NCBI GenBank assembly: GCA_032718865.1
Contig: JALUTQ010000006.1
Location: 186,001-250,000 of the forward strand
Length of the DNA: 64,000 bases
Direction of reading: 5' to 3'
From: Tilletia caries
Taxonomy: Eukaryota > Basidiomycota > Exobasidiomycetes > Tilletiales > Tilletiaceae
Both the position numbers and the translations under genes were made by a program. The first letter of the stretch is position 1; every line of letters starts with the position of its first letter. Below, one piece after another: positions 34,912-64,000 of this stretch. The notes beneath the pieces are model-generated. The model made no database searches. It had not been told where the DNA came from and worked only from the letters and a program-made list of their open reading frames with translations.

Positions 34912-35432
34912 TAGTCTGATCACACCAGACCGTCGCACGCACGTGATGACAAGGACAGGATCCCGTGGAGACGGTCTGGGGACATTCGACGCGATTTACT
35001 TAGTAGGTGGCCCATACAGAACTGAAAGTTGTCGCAGACACTGCTCCAGTGCCCAACTTCTCGACGATCCGTCAAAAAAGAGGCCCGTGCGAGCTGTCTG
35101 GTGTCCGCTCCACACGACGCAGTCAACACGAAGATTAGCTGCTCTACAGCGACGAACACAATGGCCAGCCGTGACACAACAAAGAAGCCAATGGCAAGGA
35201 AAACACCATGGCGCTGCTCCTTGTCTGCTGAGCTCGCGGCAGCGCTGTCTTTGTGCTGATTTCGTTTGGCGAAAATGGAAGCTGAGAGGAGGAGAAGTGG
35301 GCCTTCAGACGGTGTTGGGTCAAAAAGTTGCAGGCACCTTCCAATTGAATCGGGTCGAATGTCCCCAGACCGCGTACGCGGTATAGTGCTTTAGCTCATT
35401 TGAGAGTTACAAGGTCTGGTGTGACCAGACTA
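34912..35432. mobile_element. 521-bp non-autonomous TIR element (MITE-like)
   Basis: The element starts with TAGTCTGATCACACCAGACC and ends with the reverse complement of TAGTCTGGTCACACCAGACC, a 20-bp TIR with one mismatch. A second inverted pair, GGTCTGGGGACATTCGAC, lies about 45-60 bp inside each end. A perfect 10-bp target-site duplication flanks it. No coding capacity was found inside. The same terminal and subterminal motifs start the large element at 57927, so this is likely a deletion derivative or relative mobilised by the same machinery. Target duplications of 9-11 bp are typical of Mutator-like elements, but no Mutator transposase is present in the window. Confidence 0.88.
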
Positions 35433-57714: not shown

Positions 57715-57926
57715 GATGCTGGCACGGTGATGGTGATCGTGAGCAGCGACCTCGGGATGAGCTGGCGTGATGCGTCTGTGCGAAGCTGAGTGGAGAGCGA
57801 GGGAGACGCAACAGCGGAACAACGCGGGATGCAGCGAGCCCGGCCTGCTCCGAGCCAAGCTTCCCACGGCCTTCCCTTTGTGCCAACTCCCACTCGGATA
57901 CATAGGAGGTAAACCACAGGATGGTA

Positions 57927-57946
57927 TAGTCTGGTCACACCAGACC
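57927..57946 (+). repeat. Left TIR of large element
   Basis: Identical to the right TIR and one mismatch from the left TIR of the 521-bp element. It is itself partly palindromic (GTCTGGTCACACCAGAC). Confidence 0.85.
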
Positions 57947-58074
57947 ACTCCAGTCAGCTGTACGTGGTCTGGGGACACTCGACCCGATTTTATTAGTATC
58001 TGGACAACCCCAAATGTACTACTATCACCATATCCCCATGCTTCACACCGGAACCAACACGCATCCTCACAAAC

Positions 58075-60963
58075 ATGACGCCCCAAGCAGAGCACCCTCG
58101 GTGAGTATAATGCACACACGTTCAAACAGCCATGTTGCGACGGTGCAGCGGCTTGCTACTGTGCTGCAAGCGAGGAAGGTGACAACCGCAGTTTCGTCCA
58201 TTGGCGGGTCTATACTCTATAGAATTACTGACAGCCATTGTTCCTTGTTGCACAGAATTACGCGGCTCGAGAAGACAGAAGCTGTTCATGCGGCTATGGT
58301 GGAGGTCGGTCTATCCTTCTCCGACTTTTTAGAGGAGTTCCTCACCACCAAGGCCAGTAGCTTGCAGCGCATTCGGTCAATCTGGCTTTCCTACCGCTCC
58401 GATCGTCAATACGGACCTCTACGCCTCGTTCAGCTGCTTAGCGAGGCCGTGCGCAGTGCTGGAGACGATGGAGCAGTCGCGTACGACAAAGGGGTTGCAT
58501 CTATCCTCTCCGACACCATCGCTGACGAAAAGAACCAGGCCTCCCACGTACCCGGATTTCGATCTTCCGACTTTCTGAAAGATTCTTCGGCACCGGAAAC
58601 GAATCAACTTCGATACCTGAGCACGTTGATGGAAGAGCATCTTCCCGTGACGTTATGCGTCGCAGATTGTCTATGCGGAACCATCAACCAAGAAGGCCCT
58701 GTCTCTGACGGTCAAAAGGAAATCGACGGCCACATGACCGAGGACCCCCCAGTACTGTCAGAATCTCGGCAGGTGAGCAAGCTGATTAACGTATCATACA
58801 GGCACCACTCACCAGTTTCCTGACTGAACAGATGGCTTTTGATTCACAGGCAGCCGTTGTCTGCCTATCACTTGCTCTGAACCTGCGCAGCGAACGAATG
58901 AACAGACTGCAGACGGTCCTTGGTCTGTTTCTCAGGTTCAAACACACGCCCAAACCAATCCACACGATGCTCCATCGGCTAGGACTAGCGACTTGCCCGA
59001 AAACCAGCTCTCGTCACCTGGTCGAATTCAACAAGATCTCTCTTACCAAAGCCAAGACCATGATGCAGAATCCAGAACGAGTCCACACCCTCGTTTACGA
59101 CAACTTCGACATTTATGTTCAAGAGTTGTCCAATCGGGTCACATCAGCAACTCGAGTCGTCAACCTTACCTGTCGAATGGTGGTCGAGCTTCCAGAGTCG
59201 TTTTCCTCCGCAGATATATCCACGTCCATCCTATCCACCGTCAACGCTCCGCGAGATTTGAAGGAATCCGAAGTTCTGGGTGATGATGCGTATCTGACAC
59301 GCGCTGCGCATCTGTTCTTGGCCCAAGAGCTGCTCCAATCGAAGCGCGCAGCGAGCGATGCTCAAAGCAAACGTGTGCGGGACACCATTCGACTCCTGCG
59401 GGACTACATTCGAGACCTCCGTGACGCTCACCGCGTAGACGAGCTCTCAGCAGCGCGATGGCAGGTAGCTCCGCTTCCATTGATAGAGGCGAACGAAGGG
59501 AGCCTTGACGGAACTCTGGCTGTGATGGAGGATACTTCAATCATTCTGGGCGTTTACGATGAGGTTGAGATTGCCGACACTACGGCTGCATCTCAAACGT
59601 CTTCCTCCTCACCAAACCAAACCAGGTGGGACATTCGGCGCTCCAGCGTTTTGCCAATGGACGGCGTCTTGCTGGTCGTTGGAGATTTAAAGACGCACAG
59701 GAATGCCGAGGCAGCATTGAAGGGACGTAGCCGGCATACTAAAGCTGAAGACAGGTATGAATTTATACATTCAATGTCTGCTCCCTGGCATTTGCACCTT
59801 AACTGGGTGTGGGCGATATTCAAAACACACTTCTCGACATCCAAGGTTGGGTATCAAGCGAGCTTAGAGCGTCTTCGTGACGCGCTCCGTCGAGGCAAGA
59901 CAGCGCTGCGAGAGGATGAACCGCTGTACAACGAAGCCTGGGCTTTGATCCAGCATACGTTTAGCGGGTGGATCCGATGCCTGTTTGTTGCACAGCTAGG
60001 CAAGCAAAGGAAAGATTTGGCGACATGGACGCCGTCCAACGCTGATGCGGTTCGCGAGCTCGTAGACGCTGTTCGTAATGCAGCGTTGACGGAACCATCG
60101 ATACATGCTGCCGAGCTACTTCAAGACGAGGTCGGGGCGAACGCGCGTCGATTCCTACGCGATGCACTTCTGGCGATAGAGTGGAGCGACGCTTGTCGGA
60201 CGGGAGACGTTGGGAGGATGCTGATGGCCCAAAGGTTCCTGGCTGTTGCGTTTGCCGGCGTCGGCAAGCACCAGTACTCGCAGACGTGCCTGGACGAGAT
60301 CTGGGCCCATAAGGTACTACCGGTCAAAACATGGCGAACCCTGGCCGCCGCCCGCCTCATCAATCGCTTTGGGGTCCAGAACGGCTTCATCGGCGCCGAT
60401 CTGTACCAAGAACACTTGAACAAAGAGCTACAGGTCAGTGGGGGGTAAACGACAGAAGAGACCTTTGAGGATGCGGTCGCTCACCTTTCCTTGTATCTCC
60501 GATTTCCATTCAGCGGGTAGATACCAAGCACGGAGCAGCAACGGCGGTTTCGAGACTGCGGGATTGCTTCTCGGCTATTGCGGAGATTTCGAGATCCCTG
60601 AACGATGCCCATCCGGAGCTCTTCGACAAGAACGGACGAAGGCTGAAGGATGACGATGGTCATGTCAAGGATGTTGAGCGGGTTTGCAATCTGGCTCAGC
60701 AAGACGGACTCTTCGACGTACATTCGGGTAGATTGTCAAACGAGACATTGGCCGCACGCGTCAGTCGTAAGCCAAAACCAAACGCGGCAGGGGTTCCGAC
60801 TGGGATGGATTTGATCGCCGATCTGCTGCCAACGCAGTGCGGTACCGATGTGCTCGAGAAGGGGTTGAACTACTTGAGAGCGAAGGGACTTCAACAGTGG
60901 AAGAACGCAAGATCAGCATGGTGTCGATACGAGGCCTTGCTGCGAGAGTCACAGAGAACCTAG
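58075..60963 (+). CDS. DUF6589-like protein, putative transposition-associated protein
   Basis: Exons 58075-58100, 58256-58772, 58832-60433 and 60514-60963, phases consistent, about 864 residues. A 30-nt mini-exon at about 58149-58178 is possible. The central part has RVHTLVYDNFDIYVQELSNR, VLLVVGDLKTHRNAEAALKG, EDRYEFIHSMSAPWHLHLNW and VWAIFKTHF. The pattern of GD, a D followed by an aromatic-rich stretch, LH and N, then a basic loop, matches the fungal DUF6589 family. That family is expanded in many basidiomycetes, its function is unknown, and it may hide an RNase-H-like nuclease core. After 60963 an acidic frame (LLDSEPDILSDDARRALEEE) stays open to 61202; an unrecognised intron near 60900 might join it as the true tail. 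Confidence 0.68.
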
Positions 60964-61300
60964 AAACAGATCAGGAAGAGGGTCTCGTAGTCGCGACTGA
61001 GGAGGACGCGGTTGACGTACCTAGACTTCTGGATTCCGAGCCCGACATTCTCAGCGATGACGCCAGACGAGCCCTAGAAGAGGAACAGATGCATCGGAAT
61101 TGGTTGCGCAGGGAGGAAGAAGCTGAAGCTGAATTAGCGCTGGTGGACGAGGATATCACAGGGGATGGTGGTGAAGAAGGATTGATAGTGAGACAGGAGT
61201 AATCGTAACTCACCTCTGCGTTTGCGTTGATGTGTAGGTCCGCACAAGGCTGCTGAATGAACGAAGCTCATGCCTTAGATACCCATCCGTTTCGGGTTAA

Positions 61301-61699
61301 TCATGCGGCAATGGGAAGGGTGAGGCTGAGCGTAGCCCACTCCAACAGGGCAGGCAGCAACGCAATGGTATGTTCCTCTGACATGCCGGAAGAATGGCCA
61401 AGCAGAGACCGTATGTAAGAGTCGTCGATGCCCTCCTTGAACACGGCACGTGCGAGTAAGCGGGGTGCTCTGTCGATCAAGCCGCCCATCGTTTCGTCTG
61501 GCATCACAGATCGCTCCGTCTTCCACTCACGCACGCCGGAGCGGCTTTTGTATACGTTCCTCCTCCAAACAAACAAAGCCCTTCCCAAGCTGCGACAAAG
61601 CTCGACAGTATCGGAATGGGCAGGTGGAGCAGTCAGACGGCCCACGGCAGTAGAAACGCCGACATCGATTGGCAATCGTTCGACAGTGTTGCTGTCGTG
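61301..61699 (-). pseudogene. Former C-terminal tail of the helicase, in frame after a TGA
   Basis: No ATG begins this stretch, and its frame is the same as the helicase frame. It codes about 133 residues of plausible helical protein ending in LLPALLEWATLSLTLPIAA. The simplest reading is that one TGA at 61700 separates it from the helicase. Confidence 0.5.
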
Positions 61700-63951
61700 T
61701 CACTGGGAGCAGCAAGTGGGATTAGTGCCCTCCATTGTGCCTAGATCCGTGGTATAGCCAGCGTTCGGAATTCTCCTCCAGTAGAAGGACGACAGTGTGT
61801 CTTTGATTGGCCCATCACCGATAGATTCGGTGCTGACTGATGGAGGTGTCGGATTGTGCGGCTCGACAGTCTGAATCACAGGTTTGAAATCCAGCCGAAG
61901 AAGATCCGTGATTGCGACCCGCAAACATCCCGGAGTAGAAAACCATGTCTTGAGTTGGGTGTCGAGGTTGCTCCACTGCTGCTGCAGATGAGGAGTCAGA
62001 CTGGATGCCGGTGGCGCAGACTCCGGCGACGCTTCGTGCACTCGCCGAGCTTTGTAAAAATTCCGACATCGTTCGACCCAGTCAGGACACAGCAGGAGCG
62101 CCACTGCGCGCGATCCTGGGCCGCGAGCTCCACGTCCGAAGTGCTGGACCAGTCCTCGAAAGTCCTTCGGCAGCTCCCACTGGATGATCATATCTACGTC
62201 GGGTAAATCGATACCCATTCCGAGAGCCTCTGTGGCAAAGACGACTCGTATCGATCCTGAACGTAGGCCGGCCATCGTTTTTCGCTTCTCGTATGCGGAG
62301 TCCATAGCCGTGAACGAAGCAACCTGGTCCCTCAGCGATTCCGGGAGATGTTGTCGAAGTAGCTCCGCAGCCATCGTAGCCTTACTCCGTGAATTGACGT
62401 ATATGATCGTCTTTGGTAGCACGTTGGACCCATCCCTCGATTGGAGTATCGTAAGCAGATCGTGGAACGATGAAGCCGCATGCCGAAAAGGCTGAATGTC
62501 GTACGTGCACCCGTCTCGTTCTTTACCGACATCCAGCGCAAAGAAGGGAAACCGACCGAACTGTAGTGCTGAGCAAATTGAAGGCAGGGATGGTCCACTC
62601 AGCGTAGCTGACATGGCGAGTAGAGGAACGTTGGCGTTGAGCTTGGCCCGCAATAAACCGAGCTTGCCGAATTCCGGCCTGAAGGCCGCCCTTCCGGAGC
62701 CTGAGGCGATTCCCCAGTCGTACACGAGGTGTGCTTCATCCACGACAACGGCACGCAAGTCTCTGGCCCACATGCTCTCGCTGACGGCTTTGCCAACCCT
62801 GGTATTGTGGAACAGAACCTCGGGCGACAGAAAGACAACTTGCGCGGTGTTGTTCTCGATCTCTTGTATGGGATTGAATGCGCGCTCCTTTGACCCTCGG
62901 CCATGTATAAGCCTGCGCCGGGGACACTGCAAATGGTTAAAGATCACATCGGTCAACACGTCTGCCCTTAGCCTTACGCGCTGATTTATCCCGTTCAATG
63001 GACTGACCTCTGCACCGAGAGTGTCGGCGTTGAGCGCGACTGCCGATATACCCAGCTCATGCAAGATGTTGGTCTGGTGAATCATAAAGGTCTTCAGAAC
63101 ATATGTATGCAAGACAGAATGAATCGCGTTTATGTATCCTACCTGCTCCAACTGGATCTCTTTGAGTCCAGTGAAAACCAAAAAATTGGCCTTGGGAAGA
63201 CGAAGAAGAAGGGAGGCGAAGACCCAGATCATACTCTTGCCTGATCCCGTCCCCGCAGCAACGACTCCATCCATGCCGCCGAGCAAACGATAGACCGCCT
63301 CAACCTGCCATGGCTTCGGCTCCAATGGAAAATCACGAGAGCCCATGGCAGCGCGCACCCTCTCAATCAATATGTGTCTGGGAGGTAGCACATCTCGCTC
63401 CTTCCCAGACAGGCGAGGTCGCACTCGAGTTGTATTGGGTCCTGTGTTGTGGAAGGGAAAAAGAAAGGTAACCAGAAAAAATCTGTAAATGAGTAGCCGG
63501 CAACAGTCCACATAATCACACATCGAAAGCAACTCACTTATGCGTTTGCTGGCGCGTGTCTCAATGCCATGTGAGGCAGACGCGGCGGAAACTGGTTCAT
63601 TGTGACGGCTGGTGAATGCGGTTGGCGTGGGGGTGTTCAAGGAGAGGGATGCGGCCGTTTGGTCGGTCGGCGACGGCTGCGCATTGGGCGAACCCAAAGA
63701 ACCGTGCCAGAGCGCGCACAAAGCCTCTGCGCCAATCCGTTCTTCATTCGAGATGTGAAGATCACTGTATAAGTGTGATCAAAGTAGCAAGCATATGTAA
63801 ATTGTCAGCATTTATGCCCTGAAGTCTGCTCAACTCGAGTCTCAGTCATAAGATGCATCCATGCTCACATTTCCATGTCCTCCACTTGATCTGATCCCTG
63901 CCGAGCATTGATTGGCCCAACACCGGGCTCCGGCGAAGAAATCCGACGTCT
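61700..63951 (-). CDS. RecQ-like SF2 DNA helicase (5' end beyond window; in-frame stop before C-terminal tail)
   Basis: Minus strand. Upstream exons visible are 63951-63869 and one starting at 63764 (ISNEERIGAEALCALWHG). At least three further introns follow (about 63533-63442, near 63147-63079 and near 63005-62931). Motifs: AAGTGSGKSMIWVFASLLL (Walker A), VVFLSPEVL, VVVDEAHLVYDWG (DEAH), LLAMSATLSG (motif III), TIIYVNSRSKATMAAELL, VVFATEALGMGIDLPDVDMI and QHFGRGARGPGSRAVALLL (motif VI). This is a RecQ-type core without the recognisable RQC/HRDC modules. The frame ends in TGA at 61700-61702, but the same frame continues immediately for about 133 protein-like codons to 61301 (ELCRSLGRALFVWRRNVYKS, RAPRLLARAVFKEGIDDSYI). 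The C-terminus may therefore be lost by a nonsense change, or read by other means. Several introns are multiples of three without stops. Confidence 0.82.
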
Positions 63952-64000
63952 CTGGGCGATGAGAATAAGAGAAAAGATCACAGTCAGATATTAGCCGCGT

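What the first reader, a model, noticed from the sequence alone, without database searches (positions are those of the whole stretch)
57927..64000. Candidate undescribed transposon family: DUF6589-like protein plus RecQ-like helicase behind a defined 20-bp terminus
A DUF6589-like gene and a RecQ-like helicase gene sit tail to tail just inside a terminus that is proven mobile elsewhere in the window: the 521-bp element at 34912-35432 has the same 20-bp TIR, the same subterminal motif and a perfect target duplication. DUF6589 proteins are abundant in basidiomycetes but, to my knowledge, without assigned function. If they are the transposase of this element, that would give them a role and define a helicase-carrying cut-and-paste or replicative family. 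Linking the genes to the terminus is inference, because the right end is outside the window.
Basis: partly seen in the sequence, partly recalled or inferred. Interest (0 to 1): 0.9.

Follow-up and report, generated by a model that had tools for sequence, protein, structure and literature searches.

The report
DUF6589 transposase in helicase-carrying fungal transposon
The end of this fungal window holds most of a complete jumping gene that carries a likely DNA-cutting enzyme of a so far unexplained protein family (DUF6589) and a DNA-unwinding enzyme; it most likely belongs to the known AcademH group, and what it adds is a probable job for DUF6589.

Summary
The missing right end lies just past the window: the element is window 57927-64768, 6842 bp, with identical 20-bp TIRs and a 9-bp target duplication. 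It carries a DUF6589 gene (Pfam E 6e-49) tail to tail with a RecQ-like helicase. The pairing is a system: 42 of 48 DUF6589 loci in this genome have such a helicase downstream and convergent, and 10 of 11 TIR-bounded pairs with both flanks read have 9-10-bp duplications, in several divergent families. "Undescribed family" is not: helicase, 9-10-bp duplications and fungal host are the published hallmarks of AcademH (Kojima 2020, known here only through citing papers). The likely gain is a function and a testable catalytic triad for DUF6589. Comparison with reference Academ transposase sequences could not be made.

The parts
57918..57926 (.). left copy of the 9-bp target site duplication AGGATGGTA (right copy outside the window, window coordinate 64769-64777)
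57927..57946 (+). left 20-bp TIR TAGTCTGGTCACACCAGACC, itself a GTCTGGT-CAC-ACCAGAC palindrome
57966..57982 (+). subterminal repeat GGTCTGGGGACACTCGA, also present, inverted, inside the right end
   Evidence: sequences of both ends printed
58075..60963 (+). DUF6589 gene, the proposed DDE transposase; exon model 58075-58100, 58256-58772, 58850-60433, 60514-60963 (858 aa plus stop). Splice sites inferred from the sequence; the three junctions agree with the annotated T. controversa protein P0001, which itself lacks a stretch inside exon 3 and has a longer C-terminus
59099..59101 (+). codon of proposed catalytic Asp 1 (D84 of exon 3)
59684..59686 (+). codon of proposed catalytic Asp 2 (D279 of exon 3)
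60410..60412 (+). codon of proposed catalytic Glu (E521 of exon 3)
61703..63778 (-). RecQ-like SF2 helicase, 692-aa open frame with AGTGSGKS, DEAH, SAT and QHFGRGARG motifs (motifs named from recall); further exons probably upstream, partly beyond the window (inference)
61304..61699 (-). C-terminal continuation of the helicase in the same frame, separated by an in-frame stop in this copy where the C27 copy stays open
57927..64000 (.). in-window part of the 6842-bp element; it ends at window coordinate 64768 with the inverted TIR (C6:250749-250768)
34912..35432 (.). 521-bp non-autonomous relative; both ends match the sister subfamily at C25; 10-bp duplication TCCGGCTTCC

Best explanation
This is a DNA transposon of the AcademH kind. 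The DUF6589 protein is its DDE transposase: it binds the palindromic TIR and the subterminal GTCTGG repeats at both ends, cuts there with D-D-E active-site chemistry in an RNase-H domain interrupted by a helical insertion, and joins the ends to target DNA at a 9-10-bp stagger, which gives the duplications. The RecQ-like helicase, transcribed toward it, is an accessory protein that probably unwinds ends or strand-transfer intermediates or helps repair the gaps. The same kind of proteins moves gene-less copies such as the 521-bp element in trans. Shown: ends, duplications, gene pairing, predicted fold, conserved acidic residues. Inferred: DNA binding and cutting by DUF6589, the helicase's step, mobilisation in trans, and that the transposase belongs to the Academ clade.
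Confidence: 0.82

Rival explanations
1. An unrecognised transposon superfamily that resembles AcademH: DUF6589 is a DDE transposase unrelated to Academ transposases, and the helicase and duplication length are convergent.
For: No Academ sequence was available to test homology; 'DUF6589' occurs in 0 papers of the library and 'PF20231' in one unrelated optics paper.
Against: Every AcademH hallmark that could be tested is met. A Pfam family newer than the 2020 AcademH paper would not be named there (dates recalled), so silence is uninformative.
Confidence: 0.12
2. KolobokH: a Kolobok transposon with a RecQ helicase, known only from fungi.
For: RecQ helicase in a fungal DNA transposon (PMC9587614 passages).
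Against: Kolobok makes TTAA duplications; the ten found here are 9-10 bp and none is TTAA. The C/DxxH signature is absent at the conserved H314: the residue three before it is A, G or H in all 27 rows with a letter.
Confidence: 0.02
3. The DUF6589 and helicase genes are cargo; another transposase mobilises the TIRs.
For: Two TIR pairs contain other transposases (L010: DDE_1/HTH_Tnp_Tc5; L012: DDE_Tnp_4). L012 has a 10-bp duplication; L010 and L011 have none. Three long TAGTCTCAT pairs hold no DUF6589 match and were not read.
Against: In L010 and L012 the transposase lies in an insertion at about position 407 and 444 of an element whose remaining ends are 97-99% shared with each other, L011 and L006, with inverted repeats at or near the insertion's ends. 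The same two inner transposases are of two different kinds, whereas DUF6589 with helicase recurs in 10 duplication-flanked elements of several families.
Confidence: 0.03

Closest known systems
AcademH (Academ superfamily; Kojima 2020, Mob DNA 11:15, not held; known through passages of PMC10045372, PMC10799480 and PMC6416283)
   Same: Helicase-encoding DNA transposon in fungi, 9-10-bp duplications, RecQ-family helicase, DDD/E-type transposase
   Different: No difference established; identity of the transposase sequence with Academ's was not testable, and the gene arrangement of published AcademH was not seen
P element, hAT (Hermes), Transib and RAG1 recombinases
   Same: Predicted RNase-H fold with a helical insertion between second Asp and Glu
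   Different: No sequence similarity detected; 9-10-bp duplications; helicase partner; C/DxxH signature of hAT and P absent
KolobokH
   Same: RecQ helicase, fungal
   Different: TTAA duplications versus 9-10 bp here

Membership tests
AcademH | element encodes a helicase | tested here: met
AcademH | 9- or 10-bp target site duplications | tested here: met
   10 of 11 DUF6589-helicase elements with both flanks read; criterion
AcademH | DDD/E transposase | tested here: inconclusive
   predicted fold and conserved D-D-E favour it; Foldseek alone not significant; no activity shown
AcademH | transposase sequence falls in the Academ clade | not testable with these tools
   no Academ reference sequence at hand; Kojima 2020 not held
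AcademH | occurs in fungi (also animals) | tested here: met
   fungal host: all 17 proteins are Tilletia, one Ceratobasidium; animals not reached
KolobokH | TTAA target duplication | tested here: not met
   criterion; duplications
KolobokH | RecQ helicase in a fungal transposon | tested here: met
   criterion
hAT / P / MuDR / Kolobok / Dada group | C/DxxH signature between second D and last E | tested here: not met
   absent at the conserved H314 in 27 of 27 rows with a letter; criterion
Helitron | Rep/PIF1-type protein, no TIR, no target duplication (recalled) | tested here: not met
   TIR and duplication present; no such Pfam domain in the five ORF stretches scanned

The most novel reading that the evidence does not exclude
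DUF6589 defines a transposase superfamily of its own, with palindromic TAGTCT termini, a P/hAT/RAG-like insertion-bearing DDE domain and a near-constant convergent RecQ helicase, that has either been taken for Academ or overlooked; the helicase points to a transposition step needing strand unwinding that simple cut-and-paste elements lack.
Probability: 0.12. Interest if true: 0.7.

Novelty: new member of a known kind. Interest (0 to 1): 0.48.

Why it matters
Pfam lists DUF6589 as a family of unknown function, and the members found here are named hypothetical or unnamed proteins. Recognising it as the transposase of AcademH-type elements, with a proposed catalytic triad and defined termini, would let such genes be taken out of host gene counts, let short non-autonomous copies in fungal genomes be assigned to their drivers, and make the role of a RecQ helicase in transposition testable.

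Tried and rejected
Tried without result: Kojima 2020 by DOI and PMC id (not held); paper searches for DUF6589, PF20231 and Academ with XPG; protein searches meant to reach distant relatives returned 17, 1 and 11 proteins, 27 of 29 named Tilletia, with only about 8000 candidates scored in each; Foldseek on the exon-3 model, no E below 0.001; the ends of the C23:430k / C27:384k pair, homologous for 2.75 kb on the DUF6589 side with no match in the stretches fetched on the helicase side.

Rejected: another transposase as mobiliser (nested); KolobokH; Helitron.

Counting notes: clusters rows typed; the search calls those lists lower bounds. Its single 'same strand' pair (C1:1389758) points to a helicase that belongs to the neighbouring DUF6589 locus. 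One search uses typed best bit scores for 40 of 42 pairs; C13:236717 and C5:164534 had no row. In one search, C28 and C36 print 0 because the script wants the left flank to match from the first letter of the right flank; they were compared by eye. One search pairs only the first 100 of 126 TIR sites: 17 inward pairs under 12 kb, of which 2 enclose a DUF6589 match. That the TIRs begin with TAGTCT is partly built in: the C5:81928 left end was picked by looking for TAGTC, and the C5 and C13 pairs came from a search with that TIR, up to 2 mismatches; the C39/C40 left ends came from where copies stop matching. The C28 right and C25 left TIRs have 1 mismatch.

Full report
What is there. The window is C6:186001-250000 of a 38.1-Mb assembly in 40 contigs. 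The TIR at 57927 has its partner just beyond the window's edge at C6:250749-250768. The element is 6842 bp, flanked by AGGATGGTA on both sides. A second copy with both genes lies at C27:1113934-1121152, 98% identical in two long blocks, with the 10-bp duplication AGAAAATCCC. The exact TIR occurs 126 times in the genome and 0 times when read backwards as a control. All 17 proteins found with the DUF6589 protein are from Tilletia species, the best from T. controversa, so the window comes from that genus or near it.

Genes. The 538-aa frame that contains exon 3 matches DUF6589 at E 6e-49. The reverse gene has helicase domains and RecQ-family relatives in the PDB, best Bloom protein at 5.5e-15. 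In this copy the helicase frame is cut near its C-terminus by a stop that the C27 copy lacks, and the DUF6589 protein ends earlier than P0001; the C27 copy's DUF6589 exon is split between two frames.

A system, not one locus. The DUF6589 profile gives 75 matches in 48 clustered loci and the helicase 66 matches in 50; 42 of the 48 have a helicase 0.8-3.8 kb away, downstream and convergent; random placement gives about 1. Five DUF6589 loci have none, one has only a neighbour's, and eight helicase loci are unpaired. Distant pairs keep the arrangement although helicase identity falls to about 28-31% and DUF6589 identity to about 25-33% over partial alignments.

Ends and duplications. Copies at C28 and C36 (same subfamily) and C25:113545-120569 (sister subfamily) have the TIR, one mismatch in one end of C28 and of C25, and 10-bp duplications. 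Much more distant families at C39, C40, C5 (two copies) and C13 have TIRs of the form TAGTCTCAT-N-CAGAC and 9-bp duplications: GTTCGTTGG, CTGACAGCT, GTTCGAAAG, TGCGACGCG, ACGATCCCC. C36:685385-685935 is a 551-bp gene-less member with a 9-bp duplication. The C4 pair has none, and the C5:265880 copy shows no right terminus in the stretch read. Of eight TAGTCTCAT-type pairs, three enclose DUF6589; five do not, three of them long and unread. Of 17 exact pairs of the window's TIR among the first 100 sites, two enclose DUF6589, most others are under 1.5 kb, and three (2.6, 3.6 and 4.1 kb) carry insertions; the 3.6-kb one (L011) has no 150-aa frame and no duplication. The TIRs are palindromic: the window's folds at -6.1 kcal/mol as single-stranded DNA, equalled by 1 of 200 shuffles; the other three tested are weaker, with 10, 32 and 29 of 200.

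The 521-bp element. Its ends match the sister subfamily's ends better than this copy's; its middle found no match in the end stretches compared. So it shows that TIRs of this kind are mobile, driven most likely by the sister subfamily's proteins (inference).

Fold. Exon 3 was modelled with 28 sequences; the first sixteen VIA rows are transposases or RAG1. A full-length homologue, P0003, was modelled with 26 sequences at lower confidence, and its first 37 rows are transposases or RAG1. Along exon 3 the order is strand with D84, strand, helices, strand, helix, strands, D279 at a strand's end, helix, strand, long helical stretch, last helix with E521, which fits insertion-bearing DDE transposases (recalled). 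E216 and R293 are in 28 of 28 rows and H314 in 27 of 27 with a letter, roles unknown. Foldseek alone was not significant, and sequence search of the PDB found nothing.

Known kind. PMC10045372 (passages) states that AcademH makes 9 or 10 bp duplications and AcademX 3 or 4, and relates this to helicase versus nuclease. PMC10799480 (passages) says AcademH occurs at low copy in Basidiomycota, Ascomycota and Mucoromycota. PMC6416283 (passages) says 81% of fungal Academ copies contain recognisable domains, for example DEAD/DEAH and recQ_fam, and are often annotated as host genes. PMC8290104 (passages) reports widespread putative non-autonomous Academ elements in Marasmius oreades. These fit. I therefore file the element as AcademH on structure, with the transposase-clade test open. 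No paper found names DUF6589 as a transposase; preprints and most subscription papers are not in that library.

Mechanism. Shown: termini, duplication length, gene pairing, conserved acidic residues on a predicted transposase-like fold. Inferred: end binding through the palindromic TIR and GTCTGG repeats, cutting and joining, and helicase action on ends or intermediates.

Noticed in passing
L010:290-2840 (C1:1449289-1451839) and L012:275-4340 (C12:47774-51839): A DDE_1/HTH_Tnp_Tc5 (pogo-like) and a DDE_Tnp_4 (Harbinger-like) transposase inserted at nearby inner sites of the same non-autonomous TIR element.
   Followed up: partly
C21:395841-395972: Three copies of the 20-bp TIR in the same orientation, 56 bp apart.
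   Followed up: no
TIRs of the families whose ends were found: Each TIR is itself an imperfect palindrome (GTCT...AGAC), strong only in the window's family; possibly a dimer site or hairpin.
   Followed up: partly
C7:625627-633023, C19:512874-516852, C1:2075361-2086863: Long TIR pairs of the TAGTCTCAT type with no DUF6589 match inside; contents not read.
   Followed up: no
window 61703-63778: The helicase's best profile in the anti-phage library is DpdF, E 5.6e-30, presumably through shared RecQ-like ancestry.
   Followed up: no
C23:424000-434700 and C27:378300-388900: A divergent DUF6589-helicase pair in two copies, its DUF6589 94% identical to a T. controversa protein, whose ends were not resolved.
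   Followed up: partly
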